Source of the DNA: Elusimicrobia bacterium GWA2_69_24
GTDB taxonomy: Bacteria; Elusimicrobiota; Elusimicrobia; UBA1565
DNA: 64,000 nucleotides
Direction: 5' to 3'
Assembly: GCA_001799695.1 (NCBI GenBank)
Contig: MGTY01000063.1
Location: forward strand, 1-64,000
In this document: piece by piece, positions 35,961-52,554 of the stretch
How positions within the stretch are numbered: the stretch's first letter is position 1
Layout: each line of letters starts with the position of its first letter
The notes under the pieces: generated by a model
What the model was told of the DNA's origin: nothing
Databases searched by the model: none
The model's input: the letters and a program-made list of their open reading frames with translations, nothing else
Translations under genes and position numbers: made by a program

Positions 35961-35980
35961 ACTTGAATACTTGTTCAAAT
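35961..35980 (-). promoter_or_regulatory. SmtB/CzrA-type operator
   Basis: Imperfect palindrome ACTTGAATACTTGTTCAAAT. On the other strand it contains TGAACAAGTATTCA, the 12-2-12 type core of SmtB/CzrA operators. It lies 19-38 nt before the permease ATG, a position where the repressor would block initiation. Confidence 0.65.
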
Positions 35981-36031
35981 GTTAACAGTAAAGCGTGTCC
36001 GCGTCAAGGGCACTCCAGCGGGTCCCCGGGG

Positions 36032-37564
36032 TCACCACCAGCGGCCCTCGGCCCCCACGTCGCGCTCCCCCCCGGCGACGTCGAACCAGCGCTTGGCTCG
36101 CTGCGGGCGGCCCGGGAGCCTCCGCCCGCCCTGGCCCACCAGCCTCCCCTCCGGCAAGGCCCCCTCCGCCAGGAGCCGAGCCGCCTCCGCCTCCAGGAGC
36201 GCTGGAGGGGACCCGCCGGAACCCGCTGCCGCGGCGAAAGCCGCCCAGCGCTCCGGCTCGGAACGCAGGCGGCAGTAGGCGGCCGCCAGGCGGCTCGCGC
36301 GGACCAGGTCGCCGGCGCTGAAAGAACGGGTGCTCCGCACCAGCCCTTCCGGATCCGTCTCGATCCCGAAGCGGTCCAGCATGCGGGCCAGGGGGGCGTT
36401 GGGAAGCACGACGAGGTCGAAGAAGGTGATCTGCGCGGCCGGCGAGAAGCGGAGCGCCCAGCCCACGCTTTCCCGGAAGGAGTCGTAATCGTCCCCCGGC
36501 AGGCCGAGAATGAGCTCCAATTCGACGCGGACGTTGGGATGAGCGATCAGGCTGCGGATGTTCCGCGCCGACCGCTCGAGGTCCAAGGGACGGCCGACGC
36601 TGCGCAAGGTCGGGGCATGGGTGGATTGTATCCCCAGGGCCAGCATGACCCGCGGCACCCGCCCCAGGGCCGCGACGGTCCCGGGGTCGAGGAACTCCGG
36701 GCTGAGCTCCAGGTACAGCACCCCGTTCCAGTCCCGGAAGACCTCGAGCACCCGGCGCGCCCGGTCCTGGTCCGCGTTCAGGGTAGGGTCGGTGAGGTAG
36801 ACGGTCCCCGCGAAGCCGGCGCGCCGCAGCGCCGAGACCTCCCCCCGCAGACGGTCCAGAGCGAAGGTCCGCACCGTATGCCGCCCGGCGTGGTAGTCGC
36901 AGTAGACGCAGGCCCCGGCGCAGCCGCGGGACGTCTCCAGGCAGACCATCCCCACCGCGCCCGGACGGACGGAGACCGCGCCGGAAAGGTACGGCGATGG
37001 GAGGGCGCCCAGGTCGGAGACCTCGCGCGCGGCTCCGGTCCACAGCGCCGAGTTTCCGCGGCGCAGCGCGAGACCGGGAACGGACTCCGCCGCCGTGCCG
37101 TCCAGCCAGGCCTCCAGGAGCCCCGCGAAGGGGACTTCCCCCTCCCCGGGGATCGCGCAATCCACGAAGGAGTGCCCGCGCAGGAAATCGCGCAGGCGGG
37201 CGGGGTCGCGCGGCACCTCCGGCCCTCCCAGGACCACGCGGACCCCGGGCTGCCGGGCCTTCAGCGCCTTGCAGGCGCGCAGGACCGCGTTCAGGTTCCA
37301 TAGGTAGCAGCCGAAGGCCGCGACGTCCGGGCGGGTGCGCAGCAGCGCGGCGGCCGCCGCGGGCCCCCGGACGCCGTCTGTGAAGACGCGGTTCTCCATG
37401 ACGCATCTCCCGGCGAGCCCGGGAACGGCCTGCGCGTAGGCGCGGACGGAGCCCAGGCCCAGCGGCAGGTCCGCGAGCAGCCGCACGCAGCCGTAGCGGT
37501 CCTCCGCCCCGCGCGCGCGCGCATGAGGCCAGAAGGTCTCGATATAGGAGAAGGCTACCCTCAC
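36032..37564 (-). CDS. B12-binding-type radical SAM protein, sister copy B (last gene of rSAM operon)
   Basis: 510 residues. The N-terminal Rossmann-like B12-binding-type domain (about 1-150) has VAAFGCYLWN, VVLGGPEVPRDP and PGEGE, but no DxHxxG cobalamin motif. The radical SAM domain has CX3CX2C at Cys215/219/222 (SRGCAGACVYCDYH), with YLTDPTLNAD and LELILGLPGDD. The C-terminal tail has RLVGQGGRRL and ends in RWW, shared with the next gene. Start GTG, one nucleotide after the stop of the upstream paralog. Probably a C-methylase or ring-forming enzyme; substrate unknown. Confidence 0.85.
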   Translation of the reverse strand: MRVAFSYIETFWPHARARGAEDRYGCVRLLADLPLGLGSVRAYAQAVPGLAGRCVMENRVFTDGVRGPAAAAALLRTRPDVAAFGCYLWNLNAVLRACKALKARQPGVRVVLGGPEVPRDPARLRDFLRGHSFVDCAIPGEGEVPFAGLLEAWLDGTAAESVPGLALRRGNSALWTGAAREVSDLGALPSPYLSGAVSVRPGAVGMVCLETSRGCAGACVYCDYHAGRHTVRTFALDRLRGEVSALRRAGFAGTVYLTDPTLNADQDRARRVLEVFRDWNGVLYLELSPEFLDPGTVAALGRVPRVMLALGIQSTHAPTLRSVGRPLDLERSARNIRSLIAHPNVRVELELILGLPGDDYDSFRESVGWALRFSPAAQITFFDLVVLPNAPLARMLDRFGIETDPEGLVRSTRSFSAGDLVRASRLAAAYCRLRSEPERWAAFAAAAGSGGSPPALLEAEAARLLAEGALPEGRLVGQGGRRLPGRPQRAKRWFDVAGGERDVGAEGRWW

Positions 37565-37565
37565 C

Positions 37566-39098
37566 CTACCACCACCTCGGATAGGTCCCGACGTCTTCCC
37601 CGGCGGCGCGGGATTCGATCCAGCGATGGACCCGCGGCGCCCAGTCCGCGAGCCGCCGGCCACCCTGGCCCACGACGCGGATGTCCGGGATGCGCCCCTC
37701 GGCCCGCAGGCGCCGGACCTCGTCCTCCAAAAGCGCGGAAGGCCGCCGGGCGGACGCCCCGGCCGCGCGTTCGAAAGCGCTCCAGCGCTCCGGGTCCGAA
37801 CGCAGGTGCGAATAGGCCGCGACCAGCCAGCTCGCGCGCGCCAGGTCCCGCTCCGGGAAACCGCGGCAGCCGGTCACCAGCCCCGCCGCGTCCGCCTCCA
37901 GCCCGAAGTCCCCCCGGCTGGACGCCAGCGGGGAGTTGGGCAGCAGCACGAGGTCGAAAACGGTCAGGTGCGGCCGCCGCGGGGAGAAGGACAGCACCCA
38001 ATCGATGCTGCCGCGGAAGGACGCGTAGCTTTCCCCGGGGAGGCCCAGGAGCAGCTCCAGCTCGACGCTGACGTTGGGATGGGAGAGCAGGGCGGCGATG
38101 TTCCGCGCGCTCTTGCGGAGATCGCAGGGCCGCCCGACGGCCGCGAGCGCTTCGGGAGACGTCGACTGTATCCCGATCGCCAATGAGGGGGCCGCCATGG
38201 CCGCGATGGCGCGGATGGACCCCGGCGTGAAATCCCCGGGAGTGAGCTCCATGTGCACGGGATTGGGCAGGTCCCGGAGCAGGCGGAAGACGGCGGCGCC
38301 GCGGTCCCGCGCGGCGTTCAGGCTCGGGTCGGTGAGATAGACGCAGCCCTGGAAACCGGAGCGCCGCACGGCCTCCAGGTCCCGCCGCAGGCGCTCCGGG
38401 GGGAAGCGCCGAACACGATGGCGGCCGGCGTGATAATCGCAATAGGAGCAGCGGAACGGACAGCCGCGGGCGGTCTCCAGGGTGAGCATGCCCATGGCTC
38501 CCGGCCGGATGCTCAGCGCGCCGGATGCGTACGGCGCCGGGATGTCCCCGAGCTCGACGACGGGCGCGGCCGGGGGCCCGACCACGACCCCGTCCCCCTG
38601 CCGGAACGCCAGACCCGGGACCGAGACCGGAGCCTTCTTGCGCAGCAGCGCCCGCAGGAGGTCGCGGAAGGCGATCTCTCCCTCCCCGCGGACCAGGAAA
38701 TCGGCCGCCGGGATCCCGGCCAGCAGCGCGCTCAGGGCCGCGGAATCCCTCGGGATATCCGGCCCGCCCAGCACCACGAGGGGCTTGCGCCCCCTGGCGC
38801 CGAGCGCGTCACACACGCGCCGGACGCGTTCGGAGTTCCAGAGGGTGCAGGTGAAACCGACGAGGTCCGGGGCGCCGCGCAGGATCTCCGCCGCGGCCTG
38901 CGCGTCGCTCCCTCCGTCGGGGATGAGGAGGGTGCGCAGCTCCACGCGCCGGGCGAGCGCTGGATCCGCCTCCGCGAAAGCGCGCAGGCAGCCGATCCCC
39001 AGCGCGCCGTCCGCGGACAGCCGCACGCAGCGGTAGCGGTCTTCACCCCCGTCCGTCCGCGTCCAGAAGCTCTCCAGGTAGACCAGCACGACCTTCAT
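37566..39098 (-). CDS. B12-binding-type radical SAM protein, sister copy A
   Basis: 510 residues and clearly paralogous to the downstream gene at equal length. B12-type domain (LVGFTCTLWN, VVLGGPDIPRD, VRGEGE), radical SAM cysteines 213/217/220 (ARGCPFRCSYCDYH), YLTDPSLNAARDRG, LELLLGLPGE and the same C-terminal tail (RVVGQGGRRL ... PRWW). No DxHxxG motif. Overlaps the upstream gene by ATGA. Two near-twin enzymes in tandem suggest two similar modifications at different positions of one substrate. Confidence 0.85.
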   Translation of the reverse strand: MKVVLVYLESFWTRTDGGEDRYRCVRLSADGALGIGCLRAFAEADPALARRVELRTLLIPDGGSDAQAAAEILRGAPDLVGFTCTLWNSERVRRVCDALGARGRKPLVVLGGPDIPRDSAALSALLAGIPAADFLVRGEGEIAFRDLLRALLRKKAPVSVPGLAFRQGDGVVVGPPAAPVVELGDIPAPYASGALSIRPGAMGMLTLETARGCPFRCSYCDYHAGRHRVRRFPPERLRRDLEAVRRSGFQGCVYLTDPSLNAARDRGAAVFRLLRDLPNPVHMELTPGDFTPGSIRAIAAMAAPSLAIGIQSTSPEALAAVGRPCDLRKSARNIAALLSHPNVSVELELLLGLPGESYASFRGSIDWVLSFSPRRPHLTVFDLVLLPNSPLASSRGDFGLEADAAGLVTGCRGFPERDLARASWLVAAYSHLRSDPERWSAFERAAGASARRPSALLEDEVRRLRAEGRIPDIRVVGQGGRRLADWAPRVHRWIESRAAGEDVGTYPRWW

Positions 39099-40879
39099 GC
39101 CTCGGGTCCTCCGGAGCGCGGCGTGGGCCAGCGCCCCCAGACGGTCAGACCCAGCCGGGCCAGCCCGCCCGTGGTCGAGGCCGAGGGCGCGACGGAGGCG
39201 GAGTAGCGCAGGCTCAGGTGCGCGGCCTCGAAGGCCTCGGCCTCGCGGATGAAATCGTCGATGGCCAGCTCCCCGGGGGCGCGGTAGGGCACGTTGAACG
39301 GGTCCAGCCAGCCCTCGGCCCCCGCGGGCAGGCGGAGTCCGAGCTCGGCGCGGCGGAGGAAGGCGCGCGTGAACCGCGCCAGGCAGAAGCGGAACAGGAT
39401 GACCTTGTAGATGGTCTCCGCGCGCTCCGAGACCCAGCGCAGGGTGTCGTGGAACGATTCCCGCGGCTGGAGCGGGTGGCAGAGCAGGAAGACGAAGGGC
39501 GCGATGCCGGAGCGCCAGCAGGACCGCAGCTGCGCGTCGGCCGGCTCGAGCTCGATGCCCTTGGAGAAGGCGTCCAGCTCGCCCTTGGTCACCGTCTCCA
39601 GGCCGAAGAAGAGCTCCTTGCAGCCGGAGGCGGCCAGGTCCCGGAAATGCGCCTCGTCCAGCCCCGCGTCGAACCGGGCCAGGGATTCCCAGGTGTAGGC
39701 CGAGCCGCGCTCGCGCAGGGACCGGGCGAAGCGCCGCAGCACCGCTCCCGGCGCTCCGTTGTCGGAGAGGGTGAAATGAGTGCGCCCGTAGAGGCGGTGC
39801 ATCTCGTCCATGTGGTCCAGGATGCGCGACAGATGGCGGTCCGAGACCCCCTCCTTGGGCGTGGAATGCAGCTCCGTGTAGCCGGGGAAGACGTGATAGC
39901 AGAAGGTGCATTGCGCCCAATGGCAGCCGCGGGTCAGGCGGACCGCGAGCGTCGGCATGGGATAGAGGTCCATGGGCAGGCCGTCATAGACCGGGAACTC
40001 CAGCGCCTCGAGAGGGATGGGAGCGGCCGGAGGCTCCGGAGCCCGGCCGCGCAGGACGACCCCGCCGATCCCTTCCAGACCTCGGCCGGAATCGACCCGG
40101 TCCAGGATCTCCAGGAGCGGGAGCTCCCCCTCGTGCAGCACCGCGGCGTCGAACCGTTCGAAGAAGGCGGCGAACCCGGGCAGGAGCTCGCCCGCCGCCG
40201 TGCACCAGACCCCGCCCGCCACGATCCGGCTGGAGGGGGCCCGCTCCCGCGCCAGGCGCGCCAGGACCAGGGCCGGGATCAGCTGGGAGGCGGAGCAGAG
40301 CGTCACCCCGAACACCTTCGGGGCTCCCCGCGCCAGGACCCGGTCCAGGAATCCCGCGTAGAACTCCTCCAGCACGGGGAAGCGCTCGCGGGACAGGGCC
40401 GCGACGTCCTCCGCCGACCAGGACGGCGGGCGGAAGGTCACGGCGTCCAGGAGTTCGACGAAACCGCGCCAGGCCCCGGGCTCGGCCAGCGGCCGCAGGG
40501 CCTCCGGCAGCTCCGGCAGGGGGACGGTCTCCTTCACGTTCGAGAAGAGGTTCTCGCGCGCGGCGCGGCGATAGAGTTCCCGGGACGGAGAGCGCCCCAG
40601 CTTGAGCCGCAGCGGCGCGGGCTTGGCCGCGTTCATGGCCCGGGCCGCGCGGTCCAGGAAATCTCCGCGCGGGCCGCGCCAGGCCAACTCCCGGAAGCAG
40701 CGCTCCAGGACCTGGGGCCGGCACAGATGGCGATACATGAACTCCATGTTGGCGTCGGCCTGCGCGACGGTGCGCCCGTGCTTGCGGAGGTTCGCGGTCA
40801 GCTGCGGGATGCCGAGCTCGGGATGGGTGACGAGTATGTTGAGGGGCGGGAAGACGAGCACGGCGTCCGGGGCGCTCAT
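39095..40879 (-). CDS. Radical SAM protein with CX4CX2C cluster motif
   Basis: 594 residues. A long N-terminal region (about 1-300) includes a B12-binding-like Rossmann part (VFGVTLCSASQLIPALVLARLA, IVAGGVWCTAAGE, VLHEGELPLLE). The radical SAM domain opens with RGCHWAQCTFCYH, Cys319/324/327: spacing CX4CX2C instead of CX3CX2C. A similar TRGCxW start is known from RiPP-maturation radical SAM/B12 enzymes, where spacing also varies. Followed by ELFFGLETVTKGELD. It follows the possible 37-residue peptide gene with an ATGA overlap. Confidence 0.82.
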   Translation of the reverse strand: MSAPDAVLVFPPLNILVTHPELGIPQLTANLRKHGRTVAQADANMEFMYRHLCRPQVLERCFRELAWRGPRGDFLDRAARAMNAAKPAPLRLKLGRSPSRELYRRAARENLFSNVKETVPLPELPEALRPLAEPGAWRGFVELLDAVTFRPPSWSAEDVAALSRERFPVLEEFYAGFLDRVLARGAPKVFGVTLCSASQLIPALVLARLARERAPSSRIVAGGVWCTAAGELLPGFAAFFERFDAAVLHEGELPLLEILDRVDSGRGLEGIGGVVLRGRAPEPPAAPIPLEALEFPVYDGLPMDLYPMPTLAVRLTRGCHWAQCTFCYHVFPGYTELHSTPKEGVSDRHLSRILDHMDEMHRLYGRTHFTLSDNGAPGAVLRRFARSLRERGSAYTWESLARFDAGLDEAHFRDLAASGCKELFFGLETVTKGELDAFSKGIELEPADAQLRSCWRSGIAPFVFLLCHPLQPRESFHDTLRWVSERAETIYKVILFRFCLARFTRAFLRRAELGLRLPAGAEGWLDPFNVPYRAPGELAIDDFIREAEAFEAAHLSLRYSASVAPSASTTGGLARLGLTVWGRWPTPRSGGPEA

Positions 40880-40989
40880 CGGCAGGCTCGACGGCGCGCA
40901 GTCTTGCGGGCGCCGACGGCACTGTGCCCGGGCACAGTCGATACTGTTCGAGGCCCGCGACCGCCGAAGCCGATGTTATAGAGCTTCAT
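40876..40989 (-). CDS. Possible 37-residue peptide gene in the radical SAM operon
   Basis: An open frame starting MKLYNIGFGGRGPR and ending TARRRACR, between two radical SAM genes. Its ATG overlaps the upstream stop as TGATG and its stop overlaps the downstream start as ATGA, the same coupling used throughout the operon. It is glycine-rich at the front, basic at the back, with one Cys two residues from the end. If translated it is a candidate substrate peptide for the surrounding enzymes. Against this: no Shine-Dalgarno, an 18-bp palindrome lies inside it, and short open frames are common at this GC content. Confidence 0.35.
   Translation of the reverse strand: MKLYNIGFGGRGPRTVSTVPGHSAVGARKTARRRACR
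40921..40938. promoter_or_regulatory. 18-bp perfect palindrome inside the radical SAM operon
   Basis: ACTGTGCCCGGGCACAGT, 42 nt before the ATG at 40879. No T-run follows on either strand, so it is not an intrinsic terminator. It may be an operator or an RNA hairpin that controls the last three genes. Confidence 0.45.
40975..40980 (-). promoter_or_regulatory. Possible internal -10 in the radical SAM operon
   Basis: TATAAC on the minus strand, just inside the 37-residue frame and 36 nt before the palindrome. The local DNA (about 40970-41030) is visibly richer in A+T than the genes around it. It could drive the last three radical SAM genes separately. Confidence 0.3.
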
Positions 40990-42551
40990 CAATAATGTCC
41001 GTCTGTTCGTCTGGGTGTTTGTTTTCCAAGCGCCGTTGTCGTTCGAACCCGACAACGACGCGCGACCCCGCCGCGCGCGTTCGCGGCGAGCCAGGCGCGG
41101 GCCCCCTCCGCCACCCGCTCGGCGGGCACCGGGTCCGGGCCCGCGGCCAGGGGCGTCAGATATTGGAGCGCGCCGCGCTCCCACTCGGCCAGGGAGCGCT
41201 CCATGGGGATCCCCCGGGCTTCCAGGAAATCGGACAAAGAGGACGCCGCCGCCCAGAGCGGGCCGCCGCCCCGGCGCAGCGCGTCCCAGGCCGCGGGATG
41301 CCGGCGGAAGAAACTCAAACGAAGGGCAGTTCGGCGCCCGTCGCGCAGTTCGGCCGCCGAAAAGGTCCTCGTCGAGCGGACGCTGTAGGGAGGCTCCGCG
41401 TCGGCGCGGATGCCCAACTCCCGGCGCCGGCGATGGAACTCGGTCCCGGGGAAGAGCTGCATGGGGAAGACCTGCGCCTCGGGGACGTCCAGCGCGGACA
41501 TCCACTCCAGGCTGCGCCGGTAGCCCCGCAGGTCGTCGCCGGGCAGGCCGAGTATGAGCTGTATCGAGAGCCGGGCCTTCGGAGCCTTGCGCTTTAGGAG
41601 GTCGACGCCCCGGCGCACCGCCGCCTCGTCGAAACGGCGGCCGGCCGCGCGCAGGGCCTTCGGGTTCACGGACTGCACCCCGCCTTCCAGGATGAACCCG
41701 CGGTGGTCGCAGAGGCCGGCGAGCTTGGCGTCGATGTTCCCGAAATAGGCGTTGAACCAGAAGCGCGCCTCCTGCCGGGGATCGGCGGCGCGGATCGCGC
41801 GCAGGACCGCGGCGGCGCGCTCCCGGTGGAGGAACAGGTCGGGATCGGCGAAATGCACCAGCGTCCGGGGATCCATGCGCAGGATGGCCCGGAGCTCGGC
41901 CGCGACCCGCTCCAGGGGAAAGTGCCGCGGCCGGACGCCGTTGGGCCAGGAACAGAAGGCGCACGCGTAGGGGCAGCCCCGGGTGGTCTCGATGGCCGCC
42001 CGGCCCATTCCGGCCCAGGCTTGGGGCAGGGGTCCGGACAGATAGGGGGACGGCAGGGTCTTCAGGTCGCGGATCGGCGTGCGCCCGGCGGTCCGCAGCG
42101 TCCTCCGGCCGCGGCGCAGGACCAGACCGGCCACGTCCTCGAGAGCGCCGCGGCCGAGCCACGCGCGCAGGACGCCGGCGAAGGTCTCCTCCCCCTCGCC
42201 CACGACCACGGCCTCCGCGCCCGTGCGGCGGAGCAGGCGCTCCGGATGGAGCGACGCCTCCTGGCCGCCCAGGACGAGATGGATGCCGGGGATGCGCGCG
42301 CGCAGGAGCGCGGCCAGGCGGACGACGGCCTCCTCGTTGCAGAGCTGGCAATGGAGTCCCGCGGCGTCCGCGCCCGCGGCCTCCAGCCGCCGCGCCAGGG
42401 CGTCCAGGTCGTCCTCCATGGATTCGTCGACGATGGACAGCTCCACCGCGCCCAGGTCCGGCTGCGACTCCGCGTAGGCCTTGAGATAGCCCAGGCCCAG
42501 AGCGTTGGCCCGCTCCTCCCGCGGCAGCAGCGACACGAGGGCCGTCTTCAT
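40989..42551 (-). CDS. B12-binding-type radical SAM protein
   Basis: 520 residues. B12-type N-terminal domain (VSLLPREERANALGLGYLKAYA; GLHCQLCNEEA; LVLGGQEAS; VVVGEGEETF). Radical SAM cysteines 193/197/200 (TRGCPYACAFCSWP), FADPDLFLHRERA and LILGLPGDD. It resembles the core of the three larger enzymes upstream but stops soon after the barrel, without their C-terminal methyltransferase-like domain. The final 20 or so residues come from lower-GC DNA and contain an inverted repeat, so the C-terminus may be a recent extension. Confidence 0.85.
   Translation of the reverse strand: MKTALVSLLPREERANALGLGYLKAYAESQPDLGAVELSIVDESMEDDLDALARRLEAAGADAAGLHCQLCNEEAVVRLAALLRARIPGIHLVLGGQEASLHPERLLRRTGAEAVVVGEGEETFAGVLRAWLGRGALEDVAGLVLRRGRRTLRTAGRTPIRDLKTLPSPYLSGPLPQAWAGMGRAAIETTRGCPYACAFCSWPNGVRPRHFPLERVAAELRAILRMDPRTLVHFADPDLFLHRERAAAVLRAIRAADPRQEARFWFNAYFGNIDAKLAGLCDHRGFILEGGVQSVNPKALRAAGRRFDEAAVRRGVDLLKRKAPKARLSIQLILGLPGDDLRGYRRSLEWMSALDVPEAQVFPMQLFPGTEFHRRRRELGIRADAEPPYSVRSTRTFSAAELRDGRRTALRLSFFRRHPAAWDALRRGGGPLWAAASSLSDFLEARGIPMERSLAEWERGALQYLTPLAAGPDPVPAERVAEGARAWLAANARGGVARRCRVRTTTALGKQTPRRTDGHY
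41035..41056. repeat. Inverted repeat at the end of the radical SAM gene
   Basis: 7-bp arms GTTGTCG and CGACAAC around an 8-nt loop, within the last codons of the upstream radical SAM gene. Not followed by a T-run in the direction of transcription. Confidence 0.4.
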
Positions 42552-44158: not shown

Positions 44159-46254
44159 GGGGCCGACCCTTCCAGCCGGGACCAGGTCGCGCTCCCGGAG
44201 CCGAACGCCCGGCGGGGGGGGTCCGGCCGCCAGCCCCCTTTCCGGAGGTCCGCCATGACGGCCGAGACCGGGCGGCCGCGGAAATCGTCGAGGATCGTGA
44301 GACGGGCCCCGGGCCGGCAGCGCCGCCGCAGTCCGGCGAGCCAGGCCCCGGCATCCCCCGGCAAGCCGCTCAGGGCGTTCGCGAAGACGACCCGCCGGTA
44401 GCCCCCGCCCCAATCCGCCGGCCGCGGCAGGGGAGCACGCCTCCCCATGCGGAGTATCCCGCGCACGGGGAGCGGGGAGCCCAGCACGTGACGCGTGTCG
44501 TGGGGGTCTTCGGACAGGAGCACCAACCCCGCCACCCCCTCCAGGCCGGCCTGCAGGTGGGAATCCCGGGCCCAGCAGAAAAGGAGGGTGGGTCCGCCGC
44601 CCGCTCCCCGCAGACTGCGGGCCAAGGCGGGGTTCCGGCAGACGCCGGTGAAGAGCGCGCGGTTCACCGCGGCCTCCAGGACGCGCGCGGGCTCCCCGGC
44701 GGAGCCGAAGCGGGACGCGGCCCAGCGCGCGGCGCCGCGCAGGATGGCCAGCCGGTCGCGCAGGGACACGCGGCGGGCGGGCCATTCCTGGAAAGGCAGG
44801 AGTTCGTTGGGCGGACGCGAGGACTCGATCGTCTCGAACAGCCGGCGCGGGGAGAAGTCGCCCTCCGTTTCGAGCCAGTCCGCCAGCTCCGAGCACAGGC
44901 GCGTGACCGAGCCCTCCTTCCGGGCCTCCGCCGCCTCATCCAGGACCAGCCGGACCGGCCCCAGCCCCAGGAGGAAGACCGCGTCGAAGAGGAGCCTCCG
45001 GGCCGCGCGGATGTCGGCCGCGGAGAAGCCGTCGGTGGAGGTCACGAGGTAGGGAGGCTCCTTCTGCCAGCGCAAGCCGTGCCGCCCACAGTCCCGGGCG
45101 AAGGGCGTGCCGGGCAGGACCATGAGGTGATAGACCTCGCAGGTGTCGACGCCCTGGGACCAGACCCAATCGAGACTGCGGCGGAAACCCGCCAACGTGT
45201 CTCCCGGCAGGCCGAGCACCAGCTGGGTCTTGATGCGCGCGCTGGGGGCTTCCCGCCGCAGCAGGCGCAAGCCGCGCGCGGCCTTCCCGAGGTCGAAGCG
45301 GCGGTTGCAGGGGAAGAAGGCGGCCGGGTTGGCGGACTGGAGCGCCGCCTTGAACGAGAAGGCCGGGCGGTCCGCCAGCCGCGCCCCGACCCGGTCGATG
45401 TGCTCCGGGTTGGTCTCGAATTCGAAGCCGAGCCTGCCTGCGGGGTCCTCGCGCCGGATGAGCCGCAGAAGCCGGGCCCCGGCGGCGCGGTCCTGGAAGA
45501 TGTCGGCGTCGGCGACCAGGACCTTCTTCGCCCCGGTCCGCAGCAGCAACCGGATGTCGGCGCGGATGCGCGCCGGGGAGAATCGCCGGACCCGCGAACC
45601 CTTCCCGGGCCAGGCGCAGAACGCGCAGTCGAAAGGGCAGCCGCGCGCGGTCTCGAGCACGGTCCATTCCCGCCGCCCCGCGCCCGTCAGGCCGCAGGGA
45701 GAGGGCAGGCGGTCCAGGTCGCGCAGCGGAGGGCGCGGCGGATTGACGACCGCGCGGCCCCGCGAGCGGAAGGCCAGGCCCGCGACGCCCGCGAAGCCGG
45801 CGCCGCGGCCCAGGGACCGCGGCCCAGGGACCGCGGCCCGGTCGAGGAGTTCGGCGAACGTCGCCTCCCCCTCGCCGCAAACCACGAGATCCGCGCCGCG
45901 CTCCATGATCCAGGCCGCCGGGTCCGAGGACGCCTCCGGCCCGCCCACCAGGATGAGGACCCCCGGGGCCGCGGCTCGGAGAGCGCGCACGACCCGGCGC
46001 ACCTCCGCGACGTTCCAGGCGTAGCAGGAGAATCCCACGAGGTCCGGCTTCTCGGCCGCGATCCGGCCGGCCAGCGTCTTCGCGCTCGCGGACCCGACGA
46101 TCCACTCCCGCAAGGACACCTCCGCGCGGCCGCGCCGCGGCTTCCGGCAGCCCTCCGCGTAGGCCTTCAGGCACGCCAGGGCCAGCCCGCCCTCGTAGTC
46201 GGCGTTCGCCGAGAGCGCGGCCAGCAGCACGCGCAGCGGCGGGCGCCGCTTCAT
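44155..46254 (-). CDS. Tri-domain B12-type/radical SAM/methyltransferase-like enzyme 3
   Basis: 699 residues, paralog of the two upstream genes. B12-binding-type domain 1-170 (LVGFSCYAWNVAEV, LVGGPEASSDP, VVCGEGE). Radical SAM domain with Cys206/210/213 (ARGCPFDCAFCAWPGKG), VADADIFQDRA and LVLGLPGDT. An alpha-helical middle follows, then a C-terminal domain from about 557 with LLFCWARD, LVLLSEDPHD, WGGGYRRVVFAN and RPGARLTILDD. The last two blocks look like the late strands of a class I methyltransferase, but the N-terminal SAM loop is missing. The linker near residues 140-153 is encoded by a 14-bp tandem repeat. Confidence 0.83.
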   Translation of the reverse strand: MKRRPPLRVLLAALSANADYEGGLALACLKAYAEGCRKPRRGRAEVSLREWIVGSASAKTLAGRIAAEKPDLVGFSCYAWNVAEVRRVVRALRAAAPGVLILVGGPEASSDPAAWIMERGADLVVCGEGEATFAELLDRAAVPGPRSLGRGAGFAGVAGLAFRSRGRAVVNPPRPPLRDLDRLPSPCGLTGAGRREWTVLETARGCPFDCAFCAWPGKGSRVRRFSPARIRADIRLLLRTGAKKVLVADADIFQDRAAGARLLRLIRREDPAGRLGFEFETNPEHIDRVGARLADRPAFSFKAALQSANPAAFFPCNRRFDLGKAARGLRLLRREAPSARIKTQLVLGLPGDTLAGFRRSLDWVWSQGVDTCEVYHLMVLPGTPFARDCGRHGLRWQKEPPYLVTSTDGFSAADIRAARRLLFDAVFLLGLGPVRLVLDEAAEARKEGSVTRLCSELADWLETEGDFSPRRLFETIESSRPPNELLPFQEWPARRVSLRDRLAILRGAARWAASRFGSAGEPARVLEAAVNRALFTGVCRNPALARSLRGAGGGPTLLFCWARDSHLQAGLEGVAGLVLLSEDPHDTRHVLGSPLPVRGILRMGRRAPLPRPADWGGGYRRVVFANALSGLPGDAGAWLAGLRRRCRPGARLTILDDFRGRPVSAVMADLRKGGWRPDPPRRAFGSGSATWSRLEGSAP
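45803..45839. repeat. 14-bp tandem repeat within a radical SAM gene
   Basis: Unit CCGCGGCCCAGGGA, two full copies and a 9-bp third. It codes for the linker before the radical SAM domain. The unit is not a multiple of three, so a gain or loss would shift the frame. Its bases resemble part of the longer palindromic repeats at 46.3 and 50.8 kb. Confidence 0.75.
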
Positions 46255-48482
46255 GACGCCCGGCCCCCTCCGCGGGAGGAAGACGGCGCCGCCCCGGGGA
46301 CCGCGGCCCCTGGGCCGCGGCACTCCACGAGAGTCCACGGGATCCCGCCGGCGCGGGAGACCGTGCGCGGCGCGGTCCGTATCGTCCAGCCAGCCGAGAG
46401 CAGGTCCTTCCGGAGGCCGGCCAGCCGCTCCCGGCGCGTCCGCTCCGGCTCGGCCGCGACCTCCAGCGGATACCGCCCCTGCAGGGAATCCAGGATCATG
46501 AGCCGGGCTCCGGCGGGACAGGCCCGGCGCAGGACCGCGAGCCAGGGGACCGCCTCCTGCCCGGGGAGATAGCTGTAGATGTTGGCGGCCAGGATGCGGG
46601 AGTAGCCCTGTCCCCAGCGCTCCGGCCGGACCAGCGAACGGGGGCGCAGGCCCACCCGCACCGCGTCCTTGACGAGGGGCGACCGCAGCAGTCCGGGATC
46701 GAGGTCGTGCTTGTCTTCCGAAAGCAGGACCAGGCCCTGGACGTCCCGCCGGCGTACCAGGAGTTCGCGGTCGCGCGCCCAGCACAGGAGCAGGGTCCCG
46801 CCCGGAGGCAGCGGCTCCCCCCGGTCCTGGTTGAGGAATTCCGCGATCTCCGTACCCCGGGAAGCCGCTTCCCACCGCGCGCGCCCGGCCGCCGCGTCGA
46901 GGAAGCGGGCCGCCGCGCCCGCGAGGACCGGGTCCCGCTCCTTGAGCCGGGAGAGCGCCCAGCGGCGCGCGGCTTTCAGGGCCGCGATCCGCCGGGGGAC
47001 GGGCAGCTCGTCGGTGTTCCAGTTGCCGGAAGGCAGGAACACCCCTTCCGAGCGGCCGCGGTTCCACTCCGCGAATCCCCGCTCGAACGGACGCCCCGCA
47101 GCCACGGCGTCGGTCAGCTCGCGGCAGGCCTCGGTCGGCCCCGTGCCCGCCTCGTCGAGACGGCCCTGCATGCCTTCCAGGACCGCGCGCAAGGCCCACA
47201 GGTTGAAGACGAAGGCGACCCGCTGCAGGAGCTTGCGGGCCTCCAGGAGGTCCGCCTCGGAGAAGGTAGCGGTGGCGAGGACCCAGTGGGGCGGCTCCGG
47301 ATCCCAGCGCAGGCCGTGGCGGGCGGATTCGCGGTGATAGGTCGTCCCCGGCAGCACGGCCAGCCGGTAAACGTAGACCTCGTCGGCGGCCGTGCGCAGG
47401 GTCCAATCGAGGCTGCGCCGGAACCCGTCGAGCGTGTCTCCGGGCATGCCCAGCATGAGCTCGACCCCGACGGTGCACAGCGGGGCGTGCCGCTGGAGGA
47501 GCCGGATCCCGGCCCCGAAACGCTCCACGCTGAAGACCCGGTTGGCGGCGCGCAGGGCCTCGGGCGTCGTCGATTCCAGGGCGCCCCGGAACAGGAAGCC
47601 GGAGCGGTTGCAGAGGCGGGCGAGCTCCGCGTCCATGTAGCCGTAGTTGGTCTCGAAATGGAACTGCAGGACGCCGCCCGGATCCTCCTCGTGGAACGCC
47701 TTCAGGATGGCCTTGGCCCGCGTCCGGTTCATGAATAGGTCCGCGTCCGCGACGAAGAGCCGGGTGCCCCGGGTCTGCGCCGCGATGGCGCGGATCTCGG
47801 CCCGGACCCGGGCTTCCGAGAAGTAGCGCATCCGCCCGCGAGTGCCCAGCCAGGCGCAGAACGCGCAGGAGAAGGGGCAGCCCCGCGTGGTCTCGATCAC
47901 CCCCCCGTCGAAGGCGAAATCCGCGAAACGGATGATCCCCTGGAGATAGGGCGAAGGGATGGAATCGAGCTCCGCGATGGGGGGTCGCGGCGCGTTGACC
48001 GCGGCCCGGCTCCCGCCGCGGGCCGCCAGCCCGAGGATGTCCTGCGCGGGCAGTCCCGCGCAGAGGCGGCGCAGGAGCTCGGCGAAGGCGGCCTCGCCTT
48101 CGCCGAAAACGACGAAATCCGCGTCGTGGCTGGTCAGCCAGCGCCCGGGGTCCGCCGACACCTCGGGCCCGCCGAGCACGACGCGCAGCCGGGGCGAAGC
48201 CGCGCGCAGGAGAGGCACCAGTTCGCCGATGGTCCCCGCGTTCCAGAAATAGCAGGAGAAGCCCACGAGGTCCGGCTTTCCCTCCAGGATGCTCTCCGCG
48301 ATCGCGGCCGCGGGGCGCGCCCCGAGCACATGCTCCTGGATGGTGATGGGACAGCGCTCGGGCCCGGACCCGGGCCGCGAACCGGCGTACGCCTTGAGGT
48401 AGCCCAGGGGCAGCATCCCGCCGTACGCGTTATCCGGGGACAATGCGACCAAGGACGTCCGGAGGAGGCGCCCCGGCTTCAT
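46251..48482 (-). CDS. Tri-domain B12-type/radical SAM/methyltransferase-like enzyme 2
   Basis: 743 residues. B12-type domain (SLVALSPDNAYGGMLPLGYL, LVGFSCYFWN, VVLGGPEVSADP, VVFGEGE), radical SAM cysteines 202/206/209 (TRGCPFSCAFCAWLG), VADADLFMNRTRA and LMLGMPGDT. The C-terminal domain starts at about 564: LLLCWARD, LVLLSEDKHDLD, WGQGYSRILAAN, CPAGARLMILDSLQG. The final 20 residues or so are low-complexity and are encoded by a palindromic repeat that appears to have provided the stop codon. Frame is open far upstream, but the ATG at 48482 gives the operon's usual 4-nt overlap. Confidence 0.84.
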   Translation of the reverse strand: MKPGRLLRTSLVALSPDNAYGGMLPLGYLKAYAGSRPGSGPERCPITIQEHVLGARPAAAIAESILEGKPDLVGFSCYFWNAGTIGELVPLLRAASPRLRVVLGGPEVSADPGRWLTSHDADFVVFGEGEAAFAELLRRLCAGLPAQDILGLAARGGSRAAVNAPRPPIAELDSIPSPYLQGIIRFADFAFDGGVIETTRGCPFSCAFCAWLGTRGRMRYFSEARVRAEIRAIAAQTRGTRLFVADADLFMNRTRAKAILKAFHEEDPGGVLQFHFETNYGYMDAELARLCNRSGFLFRGALESTTPEALRAANRVFSVERFGAGIRLLQRHAPLCTVGVELMLGMPGDTLDGFRRSLDWTLRTAADEVYVYRLAVLPGTTYHRESARHGLRWDPEPPHWVLATATFSEADLLEARKLLQRVAFVFNLWALRAVLEGMQGRLDEAGTGPTEACRELTDAVAAGRPFERGFAEWNRGRSEGVFLPSGNWNTDELPVPRRIAALKAARRWALSRLKERDPVLAGAAARFLDAAAGRARWEAASRGTEIAEFLNQDRGEPLPPGGTLLLCWARDRELLVRRRDVQGLVLLSEDKHDLDPGLLRSPLVKDAVRVGLRPRSLVRPERWGQGYSRILAANIYSYLPGQEAVPWLAVLRRACPAGARLMILDSLQGRYPLEVAAEPERTRRERLAGLRKDLLSAGWTIRTAPRTVSRAGGIPWTLVECRGPGAAVPGAAPSSSRGGGRAS
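46263..46323. repeat. REP-like palindromic repeat, copy 1
   Basis: 61 bp that match 50832-50892 with only a few differences and no gaps. It holds two GC-rich palindromes: CCTCCGCGGGAGG-like, and CCGGGGACCGCGGCCCCTGG. It covers the 3' end of the tri-domain enzyme 2 gene. Confidence 0.85.
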
Positions 48483-50656
48483 GCCGCCTTCCCCTCCAGC
48501 CGGTACCAGGCCACCCCGTTGGGGGACATCGACCGCTCGGGAGGGGCGACGGGCTCCCAGCCCGAGGCGGAGAGCGCCCCGCCCGCGGCCGCGGCCGCGT
48601 CCTCGGGGGAACGCGGTTCGGGACCGAGAGCGGGGTCCAGCGGGCTCCAGCCCAGCATGTCGTCGAGGATGAGCAGGCGGCAGCCGGGCGCGCAGCGGCG
48701 CCGGAGCCGCTTCAGCCAAGCGGACCGCGCCGGAGCCGGCAGGAAGGAGAAGGTCTGCGAGAACACGACGCGCGAGCAGCCCTCGCCCCATAGCTCGGAG
48801 CGCGGGTCCTTCCCGGGCTCCGTCCGGACCCGGACCACGTGCCGCAGGGGGAGCGGGGAGCCCAGGACGGGGTTGAGGTCTCGCTCCTCCTCCGTCAGGA
48901 GCACGACCCCCTGGAAATTCTCCAGCCGCACGTGGCGGTCCACGTCCCTCGCCCAGCACACCAGCAGGGCCCCCCCGCCGGACGGAGCCGCCGCCCCCTC
49001 CTTCATGAAGCGGGACAGGGCGGCGTCGAAAGCCGCCTCCCGCCAGAGCACGCGATGCAGTGCCATGCGCAGGAAGCGCTCCATCCTCTCCCGGAGCCGG
49101 GCCGGCGCGCGCACCAGGCGCTGCCGTGCCCAACGCGCGAACCCGGAGAGGAGGGCCGCCCGCTCCCGGGGGGTGAGGACCTCCTCGGGGCGCTCGATGA
49201 AGGCCAGCCGCTCCTTGAGCATCCGCGCTTCCAGCTTCGCGTGCTCCGCTTCGAACGGATAGACCCGGCGCGCCTCCAGCCAGCGCGCGGCGTCCTCGCA
49301 GGCGCGGACCAGGTTCCCGCGCCCCGCACCGGAGGCCGGGCGCAGGGCCAGCAGCGCGTCGCGCACCGGCCAGAGGTTCATCAGGAGCGAGGACCGGTGC
49401 ACCGCCCGCCGGGCGCCGCGGAACGCCGCCGCCGGGAAGGTGGGGGTGGCCTCCACGAGATAGGGCGCCTGCGCGGCCCAGCGCAGGCCCAGACGCCGCG
49501 CCGAACGCATGAAGGCGGTCCCGGGCAGCACCATGAGATGGAACGCGCGGCAATAGTCGAAGCCCTGCTCCAGGACCCACTCCAGCGTCTCGCGGTAGCC
49601 CTCCGGGGTGTCCCCGGGCATGCCCAGGATCAGCTCGATGCCCACCTGGGCCTTGGGCGCGCGGCGCCGCAGCAACCGCACGCCCCGCGTGAACGCGGGC
49701 AGGTCGCAGCGCCGCCGGGCTTCCCGGAATACCGCCTTGTTGGTGGACTGCAGCCCGGCCGTGATGTTGAAGCCGCGCTTGTCCGCGAGAGCGGCGAGCT
49801 CCGCGTCGAAATGGCCGGGATTGGTCAGGAACTCGAACTGCAGGGTGTCCCGCGGGTCCTCCTCGCGGAAGATGCGCAGGATGCGCTTGGCCCGGGCGCG
49901 ATCGAGGAACAGGTCGGCGTCCGCCAGGCACAAGCGGATCCCGCCGCCCTGCGCCACCGCGCCGCGCACCTCCTGCCGAACGCGCTCCTCGGGGAAATAG
50001 CGCACCTTGCCGCCTTTCCCCGGCCAGGAGCAGAAGGCGCAGTCGAACGGGCAGCCGCGCGCGGTCTCGAGCACCATGCATTCCCGGCGCTGCCGGTCGA
50101 CCCGCAGGATGCCGCTCAGATACGGAGAGGGGAGCGTCTCCAGGTCCGCGGGGGGGCGCGGCGGGTTGGCGACGGGTCCGTCCGCCGCGCGATAGGCGAG
50201 CCCCGGCACGCCGGCGAGGCTGCCGCCCGTCATGGCCTTGCCCAGCAGCTCCGCGAAGGTGAGCTCGCCTTCCCCGAACACGACGGCGTCCGCCGGAAGC
50301 CGGCCCAGGGCTCCCGCCGGGTCCGGGGAGACCTCCGGACCTCCGAGCACGACCAGCGTCCCCGGGGCGCGGCGCTTGACGATGGCGGCGACCTCCCCCA
50401 CCGTCTTGACGTTCGATGCGTAGCAGGTCAGGCCGACCAGCCCGGGCTCCCCGGCCAGGACCTCGGCCGCGATGGCCTCCGGCGGGGTCTGGGTCTGGAC
50501 CCACTCCGAGATACCGATCTCCACGCGGTCGGAGCCCAGCCCCGGCCGGGACTGGGCGTAGGCCTTGAGCATGGCCAGGGGCAGCCGCCAGTCGAAGTCG
50601 GTGTCCGCCGAGGGGATGCCCAACAACACGCGGAAAGGGGGCTCCCGGCCCGTCAT
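48479..50656 (-). CDS. Tri-domain B12-type/radical SAM/methyltransferase-like enzyme 1
   Basis: 725 residues. B12-type domain (LLGIPSADTDFDWRLPLAML, LVGLTCYASN, VVLGGPEVSPDP, VVFGEGE), radical SAM cysteines 202/206/209 (ARGCPFDCAFCSWPGKG), LADADLFLDRARA, FEFLTNPGH and LILGMPGDT. Domain three from about 564: LLVCWARD, VVLLTEEERDLN, WGEGCSRVVFSQT, APGCRLLILDDMLG. The arrangement is the same as in its two paralogs, with domain three starting at the same residue as in enzyme 2. Likely carries out one of a series of related SAM/B12 reactions. ATGA overlaps on both sides. Confidence 0.84.
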   Translation of the reverse strand: MTGREPPFRVLLGIPSADTDFDWRLPLAMLKAYAQSRPGLGSDRVEIGISEWVQTQTPPEAIAAEVLAGEPGLVGLTCYASNVKTVGEVAAIVKRRAPGTLVVLGGPEVSPDPAGALGRLPADAVVFGEGELTFAELLGKAMTGGSLAGVPGLAYRAADGPVANPPRPPADLETLPSPYLSGILRVDRQRRECMVLETARGCPFDCAFCSWPGKGGKVRYFPEERVRQEVRGAVAQGGGIRLCLADADLFLDRARAKRILRIFREEDPRDTLQFEFLTNPGHFDAELAALADKRGFNITAGLQSTNKAVFREARRRCDLPAFTRGVRLLRRRAPKAQVGIELILGMPGDTPEGYRETLEWVLEQGFDYCRAFHLMVLPGTAFMRSARRLGLRWAAQAPYLVEATPTFPAAAFRGARRAVHRSSLLMNLWPVRDALLALRPASGAGRGNLVRACEDAARWLEARRVYPFEAEHAKLEARMLKERLAFIERPEEVLTPRERAALLSGFARWARQRLVRAPARLRERMERFLRMALHRVLWREAAFDAALSRFMKEGAAAPSGGGALLVCWARDVDRHVRLENFQGVVLLTEEERDLNPVLGSPLPLRHVVRVRTEPGKDPRSELWGEGCSRVVFSQTFSFLPAPARSAWLKRLRRRCAPGCRLLILDDMLGWSPLDPALGPEPRSPEDAAAAAGGALSASGWEPVAPPERSMSPNGVAWYRLEGKAA

Positions 50657-52554
50657 GGCCGCAGGAGCTCCTGGTCCGCGGGATACGCCGCGAGCTGCTC
50701 CCGGAAAGTCCCCACGCAATGCGGATAATGGGGGCAGCCCAGGCAGGTCTCGGGCTTCACAAAACTCTGGTGGAGGATGTAGAGCTTGATGGAATCCGCG
50801 ATCCTGGCGCCGGCGATGACCGGCGAACGCTGCCCCCTCCGCGGGAGGTTGACGGCGCCGCCCCGGGGACCGCGGTCCCCGGGCCGCGGCACCCGCCGCT
50901 GGATGCAGACCGGGAAGGCGGCCAGGGACCGGGACCGCACCTCGCGCAGGATCTGCTCGTAGGAGGGGGCCAGGTCCGCGTAGGGCAGGTTCATGCTGTC
51001 GGGGTCCTTGGGCCGGAGCGGGAGGATGCTGAAGGGGAGCTTCATCTCCTGGAGCGCCCAGCGCTCCAGCTTGGCGACGGAGCGCAGGTTCTGCTTCATC
51101 AGATTGGTGTGGAGATAGACCTCCGCCCCGCCCACGCGGCGCAGGTTCACGATACCCGCCACCACGTCGCGGAAGCTCCCGGGGCGGCGGGTCAGGGCGT
51201 CGTGCTCGTCGGGGTCGCTGGAGTACACGGGGATGGGGAAGGACGTGGCGCCGGCCTCCACCAGCCGGCGCGCGAAGCCCGCGTCGGCCAGGAGCGTCCC
51301 GGAAGTCATGACCTCCACCTCCCGGAAGCCGCAGCGGCGGCAGAGGCGCAGGATGTCCAGTATGCGGGGATGCAGGAGCGGCTCGTTGCCCAGGAGGGCG
51401 ACCCGGGTCCGCCCCACCTTGAGGTTCTGCCGCATCGCGGCCTCCACCTCGTCGAAGCTCTGCCCGGGGTCCGCCACCTTGGCCTTGCAGAAGATGCAGT
51501 CCAGCAGGCAGCCGGAGCGCAGGAAATAGAACATGCGGTCCAGGTCCGGCAGGCGCAGGCGCAGGAAGCGGTCCTGCCCGCGGAAATCGGCCAATAGCAG
51601 CCCGCGCTTGATGGCCGGGTTCTCGGAGCGGTCATGGAACCCGCGGATAGGCTTCTTGAAGAAGGCGCAGAGGCTCAGGGCCAGATGCACGTTGTTGAGC
51701 CAGAGGCCCCGGGCCGCCCCGGTGAGGGCCGCGTTCGCGCGGGCAAGCCGTTCCCCCGGGCTCCGGAACAGGGCGTCCAGCCCGTCGAGGCCGCGCGCCG
51801 CGACCGCCGGGAAAGCCGCGCGGAGGCCCGGCCAGGGACCGTCGCCATGGGCGGGCCTCCAGACCAGCGCTCCGTCCGGACCCAGCCGGAGCTCGTTGGC
51901 CAGGAGCTCCGGCACCGGGTCCTCGTAGAGATTGAGCACGTCGAGCGGCTGGGGCCGGTCCCCGTGCTTCTGATTGAGCCCGCCCAGCCATTCCGACAGG
52001 CCGGCACGGAGCTTCCCCTCGGAGCCCGGCGGCCAGAGGACGCCGAGCTCCAGGCGCAGGCGCACCTTGGCCGGAGCCAGGGCTTCCAGCGCCTTGAGGC
52101 GGGGCCGCAGCGCCGGGAGGTCGCGCGGTCCGAGCACGGCTTCGAACACGCCCAGGACGCCCGCGGCCCGGAGGCGCCGCAGTTGGGCCGCGCTGCGCGC
52201 CAGCCCGGGTCCCTCCCGGGGACCGGCCCGGACCACGACCTCGGCTTCCAGCTCGCGGAGGGACCGGAGCAGCCCCGCGGGCACCGGCTCGGGGGTATCG
52301 AAGCTGAGGGAAAGCTCCCGCCCCTGCTCCAGCGCGGCGCGGTGGAGCTCACGGAGCGGGGCCAGCCAGAGGCCGCGGCGCCCCCACAACCCGCTGCCGC
52401 GCAAGGTCACCCGCAAGCGCAGGGGTCTGGAGGCGAGGAGGAGTCCGAGGGACTTCTCCAGGACGGCGCGCACCAGGGTCCGCCCGCCCTCGCGCGGCAC
52501 GACCGTCAAGCCGTGCAGGACCCCGCCGGTGGACCCGACCTCGATCAGCCTCAC
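50653..52554 (-). CDS. SPASM-like radical SAM protein, first gene of the rSAM operon
   Basis: 633 residues. The radical SAM motif is unusually late: Cys349/353/356 in RSGCLLDCIFCKAK, then LLGNEPLLHP, EVMTSGTLLADA and HTNLMKQN. An additional cluster site closes the protein (CLGCPHYPHC, Cys604/607/613), as in SPASM/twitch enzymes. The 340 residues in front look like a second, cysteine-poor alpha/beta barrel. Residues about 555-575 come from an inserted palindromic repeat. SPASM enzymes often act on peptides, which fits a peptide-modification pathway. GTG start fixed by a TATCAT box 7 nt upstream. Confidence 0.83.
   Translation of the reverse strand: MRLIEVGSTGGVLHGLTVVPREGGRTLVRAVLEKSLGLLLASRPLRLRVTLRGSGLWGRRGLWLAPLRELHRAALEQGRELSLSFDTPEPVPAGLLRSLRELEAEVVVRAGPREGPGLARSAAQLRRLRAAGVLGVFEAVLGPRDLPALRPRLKALEALAPAKVRLRLELGVLWPPGSEGKLRAGLSEWLGGLNQKHGDRPQPLDVLNLYEDPVPELLANELRLGPDGALVWRPAHGDGPWPGLRAAFPAVAARGLDGLDALFRSPGERLARANAALTGAARGLWLNNVHLALSLCAFFKKPIRGFHDRSENPAIKRGLLLADFRGQDRFLRLRLPDLDRMFYFLRSGCLLDCIFCKAKVADPGQSFDEVEAAMRQNLKVGRTRVALLGNEPLLHPRILDILRLCRRCGFREVEVMTSGTLLADAGFARRLVEAGATSFPIPVYSSDPDEHDALTRRPGSFRDVVAGIVNLRRVGGAEVYLHTNLMKQNLRSVAKLERWALQEMKLPFSILPLRPKDPDSMNLPYADLAPSYEQILREVRSRSLAAFPVCIQRRVPRPGDRGPRGGAVNLPRRGQRSPVIAGARIADSIKLYILHQSFVKPETCLGCPHYPHCVGTFREQLAAYPADQELLRP
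50832..50892. repeat. REP-like palindromic repeat, copy 2
   Basis: 61 bp, nearly identical to copy 1 at 46.3 kb. Its centre is a perfect 20-bp palindrome CCGGGGACCGCGGTCCCCGG. It is translated in frame between the barrel and the C-terminal cysteine cluster of the SPASM-like enzyme. Confidence 0.85.

What the first reader, a model, noticed from the sequence alone, without database searches (positions are those of the whole stretch)
36032..52554. Nine consecutive radical SAM genes in one translationally coupled operon
All nine genes lie on the minus strand and carry a radical SAM cluster motif. Successive genes join by ATGA overlaps, one TGATG and one 1-nt gap. Four subfamilies are mixed: SPASM-like, B12-type with a C-terminal extension, HemN-like, and compact B12-type. 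Such density points to a multi-step pathway building one complex product through radical methylation, cyclisation or rearrangement. I know of no characterised pathway with this set. I recall reports of radical SAM-rich loci beside nitrogenase paralogs in groundwater Elusimicrobia, but not of a defined product.
Basis: partly seen in the sequence, partly recalled or inferred. Interest (0 to 1): 0.93.

Follow-up and report, generated by a model that had tools for sequence, protein, structure and literature searches.

The report
Radical SAM array beside nitrogenase-like genes
A bacterium from an order that includes named groundwater Elusimicrobia carries nine tightly packed radical SAM enzyme genes that likely work, together with nitrogenase look-alike proteins, on a small His-Xaa-Ser repeat peptide, which would give the still unexplained nitrogenase look-alikes of this phylum a job that can be tested.

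Summary
The nine radical SAM genes are there (36032-52554, minus strand), with two corrections. R7 has CX4CX2C instead of CX3CX2C and scores below the Pfam cut-off. The R6/R7 junction is a 109-nt gap whose TGATG opens only a 37-codon frame; the other junctions are six ATGA overlaps and one 1-nt gap. The window also holds a NifD/NifK-like pair between two HemN-like radical SAM genes (9517-15281).

R1, the first gene, is the best anchor. It occurs in 13 of 340 phylum genomes; all 13 also have the His-Xaa-Ser (HXS) peptide maturase HxsB and nitrogenase-like genes. R1 lies within 15 kb of a nitrogenase-like gene in 6 of 13 (0.37 expected) and within 25 kb of HxsB in 5 of 13 (0.20 expected). In one relative, HxsB, the HxsA4 repeat peptide, NifDK-like genes and R1 lie in one 12-gene same-strand run. 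I read the array as a likely tailoring operon of an expanded HXS/nitrogenase-like pathway.

Against it: no Hxs gene lies on the window's own contig, three of seven array-type loci show glycan genes instead when R2-R4 relatives alone are followed, and the nine-gene order was found nowhere else. Substrate and chemistry are inferred.

The parts
50653..52554 (-). R1: radical SAM protein (633 aa), CLLDCIFC, predicted second, cysteine-motif-free barrel in the N-terminal half, four C-terminal cysteines (550, 604, 607, 613) invariant in 10 aligned members
   Evidence: Pfam 61.6 bits; HxsC 59.2 bits, cut-off 267.9; alignment A3; AlphaFold model and structure comparison
48479..50656 (-). R2: B12-binding + radical SAM with C-terminal extension (725 aa)
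   Evidence: Pfam; alignment A1
46251..48482 (-). R3: B12-binding + radical SAM; extension predicted to have a class I methyltransferase fold (743 aa)
   Evidence: Pfam; model pLDDT 69.4; structure comparison
44155..46254 (-). R4: B12-binding + radical SAM with C-terminal extension (699 aa)
   Evidence: Pfam; alignment A1
42548..44158 (-). R5: HemN-like radical SAM (536 aa)
   Evidence: Pfam 54.7 bits; STM4012 model 132.6 bits, cut-off 380
40989..42551 (-). R6: compact B12-binding + radical SAM (520 aa)
   Evidence: Pfam
40876..40989 (-). 37-codon open frame in the R6/R7 gap (TGATG start, ATGA end); coding status doubtful
40921..40938 (.). 18-bp perfect palindrome in the R6/R7 gap, possible operator
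   Evidence: 10 palindromes of 16 bp or more in the window
39095..40879 (-). R7: radical SAM-like with CX4CX2C (594 aa)
   Evidence: Pfam 21 bits, below 29.5; motif in 9 of 9 aligned members
37566..39098 (-). R8: compact B12-binding + radical SAM (510 aa)
   Evidence: Pfam; 51% identical to R9
36032..37564 (-). R9: compact B12-binding + radical SAM (510 aa)
   Evidence: Pfam
13893..15281 (-). HemN-like radical SAM gene of the nitrogenase-like block
   Evidence: Pfam 72.9 bits; STM4012 163.8 bits, cut-off 380
12532..13896 (-). NifD-like protein
   Evidence: PF00148 79.3 bits; best NCBIfam nifE 37.5 bits, cut-off 505.1
11244..12551 (-). NifK-like protein
   Evidence: PF00148 129.4 bits; best NCBIfam vnfK 41 bits, cut-off 873.95
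9517..11247 (-). HemN-like radical SAM gene of the nitrogenase-like block
   Evidence: Pfam Radical_SAM 58.4 and HemN_C 25.5 bits

Best explanation
The block is nine tightly packed radical SAM genes, six of them with a B12-binding domain, that likely act as a tailoring operon on a ribosomally made His-Xaa-Ser repeat peptide (HxsA4), in a pathway that would also use the nitrogenase-like proteins encoded in the same genome. Shown: the nine genes and their domains, the NifDK-like pair in the window, and, on another contig of the same draft genome, an HxsA4 gene, two HxsB genes, two NifH-like proteins and six more NifDK-like matches. Shown for relatives: R1 homologs recur beside Hxs and nitrogenase-like genes. 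Inferred: HxsB and its partners would first act on the (Ser-His-Gly)n repeat; the B12-type proteins (R2-R4, R6, R8, R9) would then methylate or remodel unactivated carbons; R5 would add a C1 unit or a ring in the HemN manner; R1 would hold peptide on its motif-free barrel and form a cross-link with its active one; R7 would do a related radical step; the NifH/NifDK-like proteins would supply a low-potential reduction of the modified peptide or of a cofactor built on it.
Against: No HxsA, HxsB or HxsD match lies on the window's contig; in this genome they are on C9, and 37 kb separate R1 from the NifDK-like pair. R1 is below the HxsC cut-off (59.2 against 267.9). In 5 of 13 R1 genomes neither a PF00148 nor an HxsB gene lies near R1 on its contig within 25 kb and no NifH-like gene was seen (G000, G041, G051, G052, G188; G051 and G052 contigs are only 3 and 11 kb). 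R3 relatives in G035, G026 and G036 sit near glycosyltransferase, epimerase or DegT genes, and G024's and G054's show no Hxs or Nif link. HxsB also occurs in 46 genomes without a PF00148 match at 1e-25. Known nitrogenase-like enzymes act on small molecules, not peptides (recalled).
Confidence: 0.48

Rival explanations
1. The array builds or modifies a small molecule such as a tetrapyrrole: nitrogenase-like proteins reduce a ring as in chlorophyll or F430 synthesis, B12 radical SAM proteins methylate or cyclise it in a BchE-like way and HemN-like proteins act on side chains; Hxs genes would be neighbours for another reason.
For: [quoted passage not shown] R5 and two more window genes are HemN-like. 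C9's NifH-like proteins score 245-265 bits on CfbC and 247-266 on nifH.
Against: BchE and HemN models are far below cut-off (best 59.8 of 481.35 and 113 of 324.95 in R1-R9). 44 of 56 PF00148 genomes carry HxsB, which this reading does not predict.
Confidence: 0.24
2. The array makes an unusual glycan or sugar: B12 radical SAM proteins methylate or rearrange sugars, as their relatives in glycan loci may do.
For: R3 relatives in G035, G026 and G036 lie near glycosyltransferase, epimerase or DegT genes. A gut Clostridia locus with R7-like and R2-R9-like proteins has a GT2 gene (L056), and one with R2-R9-like proteins only has an epimerase gene (L045).
Against: No glycosyltransferase was found among the scanned neighbours of the array; a GH114-like gene and a GH1 gene lie upstream. 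R1 homologs recur in Hxs/Nif loci.
Confidence: 0.13
3. The block is two or more functional units (R1-R6 and R7-R9) or a set of duplicated genes without one joint product.
For: 109-nt gap with palindrome and hairpin at R6/R7; R2/R3/R4/R6 and R8/R9 are paralogs.
Against: R2-R4-like and R7-like genes overlap by 4 nt in G041 and G030. One R1 homolog (54%) and two R7 homologs (54% and 52%) list the same longest contig length, 27645, from JGI, which suggests one contig. No promoter-like site was found at the gap.
Confidence: 0.1

Closest known systems
His-Xaa-Ser (HXS) RiPP systems: HxsA, HxsB, HxsC, HxsD (NCBIfam)
   Same: R1 homologs lie near HxsB in 5 of 13 genomes; the genome has HxsA4, HxsB and HxsD over cut-off on C9; R1's best NCBIfam model is HxsC, below cut-off
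   Different: No Hxs gene on the window's contig; nine radical SAM proteins, six with B12-binding domains, and nitrogenase-like proteins are not part of the HxsABCD set as recalled
Radical SAM-rich loci with a nitrogenase paralog in Elusimicrobia (Meheust et al. 2020, title seen in reference lists, content recalled)
   Same: Same phylum, radical SAM arrays and NifDK-like genes in one genome and window
   Different: The tie to an HXS peptide is what this work adds; I could not read the paper to see whether it notes it
B12-dependent radical SAM methylases of RiPPs (TIGR03975; PoyC recalled)
   Same: B12-binding plus radical SAM domains
   Different: R2-R4 and R6-R9 score 46-76 bits on TIGR03975, cut-off 281.85; no such precursor found
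IsrBHDK of Rhodobacter capsulatus (PMC11423573, passages)
   Same: A nitrogenase-like enzyme working with a radical SAM enzyme
   Different: One radical SAM gene and a small sulfonate substrate; here arrays of 9, 14 and 13 matches

Membership tests
HXS RiPP system | HxsA repeat precursor at the locus | tested here: not met
   The only match in this genome is on C9:22764-23141, none on the window's contig; no short-period repeat array in the window
HXS RiPP system | HxsB and HxsD at the locus | tested here: not met
   Two matches each in this genome, all on C9
HXS RiPP system | HxsC radical SAM protein | tested here: not met
   R1 59.2 bits on TIGR03977, cut-off 267.9
HXS RiPP system | Modification of the repeat peptide | not testable with these tools
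   Needs expression and mass spectrometry
B12-dependent radical SAM proteins | B12-binding (PF02310) plus Radical_SAM (PF04055) over cut-off | tested here: met
   R2, R3, R4, R6, R8, R9 (6 of 9 genes)
KedN5 subfamily (NF033712) | Curated cut-off 700 bits | tested here: not met
   Best 161.3 bits, R3
Radical SAM superfamily (R7) | CX3CX2C and Pfam cut-off | tested here: inconclusive
   21 bits in hmmscan, cut-off 29.5; conserved CX4CX2C instead; five of seven non-self homologs of E below 1e-50 carry PF04055 with or without PF02310 in the database's own annotation, counting only those listed with it alone or with B12:
Nitrogenase (NifDK) | PF00148 fold family | tested here: met
   79.3 and 129.4 bits, cut-off 28.6
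Nitrogenase (NifDK) | Curated nifD/nifK/nifE/nifN cut-offs | tested here: not met
   Best 37.5 of 505.1 and 41 of 873.95
Group VI nitrogenase homologs | Placement in a nitrogenase tree | not tested
   The name is taken over from PMC11257099; no tree of these proteins was built
BchE / HemN tetrapyrrole enzymes | Curated cut-offs | tested here: not met
   R1-R9: BchE best 59.8 of 481.35, hemN best 113 of 324.95

The most novel reading that the evidence does not exclude
The nitrogenase paralog of Elusimicrobiota is a peptide-pathway enzyme: NifH/NifDK-like proteins and dozens of radical SAM proteins, R1-R9 among them, jointly convert a (Ser-His-Gly)n HxsA4 peptide into a heavily remodelled, perhaps metal-binding product. 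It would be the first nitrogenase relative known to work in RiPP biosynthesis.
Probability: 0.3. Interest if true: 0.93.

Novelty: new variant of a known kind. Interest (0 to 1): 0.72.

Why it matters
What the nitrogenase paralog of Elusimicrobiota does is open, with tetrapyrrole modification as the suggestion I saw in print. A tie to one encoded precursor peptide would make it testable with ordinary expression and mass spectrometry. It would also show how far a radical SAM peptide pathway can expand: arrays of 9, 14 and 13 Radical_SAM matches on three contigs of one draft genome.

Tried and rejected
The 37-codon ORF as a RiPP precursor: its frame is open for 721 codons, it overlaps a palindrome, and tblastn at 1e-5 gave no match in the first 11 loci, a weak test for so short a query. 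HxsA-type repeats in the window: none among 17 tandem-repeat rows, periods 11-21. A shared operator: the palindrome has no second copy within 4 mismatches in the window; in six other stretches of this genome (L019-L024) only two, both in L021, with 2 and 4 mismatches. Whole-array synteny: not found in the loci examined. The R3 extension in the protein database: only the window's own protein among the 7991 candidates scored. Specific NCBIfam names for R1-R9: none over its cut-off. Tetranucleotide agreement of C9 and C122 with the window (r 0.956-0.994) does not separate them from sister genomes (0.947 and 0.975 for L018 and L013), so the bin itself is not confirmed by it. Fold comparisons cannot exclude families that are not listed.

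Counting limits. Gene calls in relatives come from my own codon-score script, which may misplace starts or merge genes. P values ignore relatedness. The HxsB table was cut by the tool, so 11 of 31 is a lower bound; its expectation is rough. G188 and G213 count as R1 genomes on partial matches. The tree used 57 chosen rows; G026's relative was dropped because my caller missed it. My notebook says about 16 and 17 radical SAM hits for C9 and C122; recounting one search gives 14 and 13. Contexts of R3 relatives in G039 and G051 were not examined for glycan genes; G054's and G024's were read by eye.
Full report
WHAT IS THERE. The window is the first 64 kb of a 97-kb contig (C63) of a 4.2-Mb draft genome, 85% complete. 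At 36032-52554, minus strand, lie nine consecutive genes, R1 (upstream) to R9. Pfam Radical_SAM is met by eight of nine; R7 is at 21 bits against 29.5. R2, R3, R4, R6, R8 and R9 also pass the B12-binding domain. No NCBIfam model reaches its cut-off in any of the nine. R7 carries CX4CX2C in 9 of 9 aligned members. Six of eight junctions are ATGA overlaps and one is a 1-nt gap. The R6/R7 gap of 109 nt holds an 18-bp perfect palindrome next to a GC dip to 38% and a 12-pair hairpin at the end of R6; its TGATG leads into a 37-codon frame only. Controls weaken a regulatory reading: ten palindromes of 16 bp or more in the window, a fold z-score of -1.71, and no promoter-like site there.

SURROUNDINGS. 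The same window has NifK-like and NifD-like genes (11244-12551, 12532-13896) between two HemN-like radical SAM genes; the four overlap one another. The genome has 93 Radical_SAM matches, 89 of them over the cut-off alone or with neighbours in the frame; 14 lie in C9:12.6-34 kb and 13 in C122:34.8-56.1 kb. C9 also has two NifH-like proteins, six PF00148 matches, two HxsD over cut-off, two HxsB over cut-off and one HxsA4. No NifH match lies on the window's contig.

RELATIVES OF R1. The family counts 10 proteins, the window's own among them, plus one weak hit, among 7991 scored candidates of a 5.8-billion database; the three with a source name that gives an organism are Elusimicrobia or Elusimicrobiota. 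In 340 phylum genomes 13 have R1 at E <= 1e-40, the own genome included. All 13 have HxsB and PF00148. Nearest PF00148 on R1's contig: G040 1.2 kb, G030 2.9, G025 3.7, G032 4.2, G024 9.3, G213 13.8, G000 37.0; none on the contig in G041, G051, G016, G052, G039, G188. Nearest HxsB: G016 7.1 kb, G025 7.2, G030 11.3, G040 13.1, G213 23.3; none on the contig in the other eight. G039 has a NifH-like gene about 4 kb away by phmmer. In G040 C95 a 12-gene same-strand run with gaps of at most 61 nt holds HxsB, HxsA4, two NifDK-like genes, the R1 homolog and seven more radical SAM candidates: five of these seven pass Pfam, one is below cut-off (25.9 bits) and one was seen by motif only. G030 C8 (54 kb) holds R1, Hxs genes, several Nif-like genes, two genes similar to R5 and to the window's HemN-like gene, and two R2-R4-like genes plus the start of an R7-like gene 157 nt from a NifH-NifD-like gene. 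G041 C20 has the same trio on a contig with HxsA, HxsB, HxsD and PF00148 genes.

R7. At E <= 1e-40 the R7 alignment finds 11 of 340 phylum genomes, with weak members. Nine of the 11 have HxsB and five have PF00148 at 1e-25.

WIDER TEST. HxsB: 90 of 340 genomes, 0 of 14 control genomes. PF00148 at E <= 1e-25: 56 of 340, 3 of 14 controls. Both: 44 (Fisher P 1.5e-19, relatedness ignored). Of the 12 PF00148 genomes without HxsB, ten have much stronger matches (best E below 1e-70), as I would expect of true nitrogenases; the others are G008 and G010, and G010 has HxsA and HxsD. Forty-six HxsB genomes have no PF00148 match at this threshold. Among 31 genomes with both and without R1, PF00148 lies within 25 kb of HxsB in 11 (1.1 expected). 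So the tie does not hang on R1.

B12-TYPE PROTEINS. R3 relatives were found in 15 of 57 near genomes at E <= 1e-30, the own included. In G001, G002, G004 and G007 they share a contig with HxsA (4 of 4) and HxsD (3 of 4), and these four have no PF00148 match at 1e-25. In G030 and G041 they lie on contigs with Hxs and Nif-like genes; in G010 beside NifH and NifDK-like genes. In G035, G026 and G036 they lie near glycosyltransferase, epimerase or DegT genes; in G054 and G024, read by eye, neither Hxs nor Nif nor a clear glycan link was seen; G039 and G051 were not examined. Gut Clostridia have arrays of about 640-aa proteins similar to R2-R9; three (L044, L049, L056) also hold R7-like CX4CX2C proteins, and GT2 (L056) or epimerase (L045) genes occur nearby. 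In a 57-row tree R2, R3, R4, R6 and the G024 protein form a group (99/95) inside a 17-row clade (97/90) with the Hxs-locus and Nif/Hxs-contig proteins and three proteins from G035, G036 and G054; R8/R9 branch just outside (91/60). B12-type proteins alone therefore do not fix the substrate; R1 is the stronger clue.

MECHANISM. Shown: genes, domains, co-location. Predicted: folds. Inferred: the array tailors the HXS peptide by radical methylation, C1 transfer and cross-linking, with nitrogenase-like proteins as a low-potential reductase. By the membership tests the window's array is not itself an HXS system, since no Hxs gene lies on its contig; the claim is that it works with one.

LITERATURE. 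Ten searches were made. Only joined nitrogenase-like, RiPP and radical SAM: 0 papers. The library lacks most subscription papers, and Meheust et al. 2020 is not held. Seen: passages of PMC11257099, PMC11423573 and PMC12176620 (debate whether group VI holds an active-site cluster); reference-list passages of PMC9391474; abstract and passages of PMC9062424 (HXS motif and HxsB/HxsC). The group VI name for the proteins here is taken over, not tested by a tree.

VERDICT. The multi-step radical pathway is partly supported and gains a likely, unproven substrate.

Noticed in passing
genome contigs C9:12640-33987 and C122:34775-56105 (L019-L023): Two further radical SAM arrays in the same draft genome, with 14 and 13 Radical_SAM matches.
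   Followed up: partly
L022:13709-18061 (contig C122): A 1450-aa right-handed beta-helix repeat protein (PF13229 270.8 bits) directly before the C122 radical SAM array; it could be a substrate or a bystander.
   Followed up: partly
L152:10880-13291 (G025 contig C5): One open frame joins an HxsA-like (SHG)n repeat to a B12-binding domain; a true fusion or a frame error.
   Followed up: no
L044, L049, L056 (gut Clostridia MAGs): Arrays of about 640-aa R2-R9-like proteins together with R7-like CX4CX2C proteins.
   Followed up: partly
L030:3013-16643 (G010 contig C64): NifH, two NifDK-like genes and several radical SAM genes, one fused to a methyltransferase domain, on one strand.
   Followed up: partly
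window 34381-36030: ArsR-type regulator and ArsP-like permease genes downstream of R9; the only promoter-like site of the scanned region (36007-35979) lies before them.
   Followed up: no
window 19340-28813: Three FG-GAP/ASPIC-UnbV proteins with two 4Fe-4S proteins.
   Followed up: no
window 29307-33374: VTC, CotH kinase and DUF4956 genes in a row.
   Followed up: no
window 52568-58280: Upstream of R1 on the same strand: a 1389-aa protein without Pfam match (13-nt gap to R1), an isochorismatase-family gene and a GH114-like gene; they may share the transcript.
   Followed up: partly
L013:11078-13063 (G004 contig C33): A B12 radical SAM relative reads as two adjacent open frames inside the Hxs locus.
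   Followed up: no
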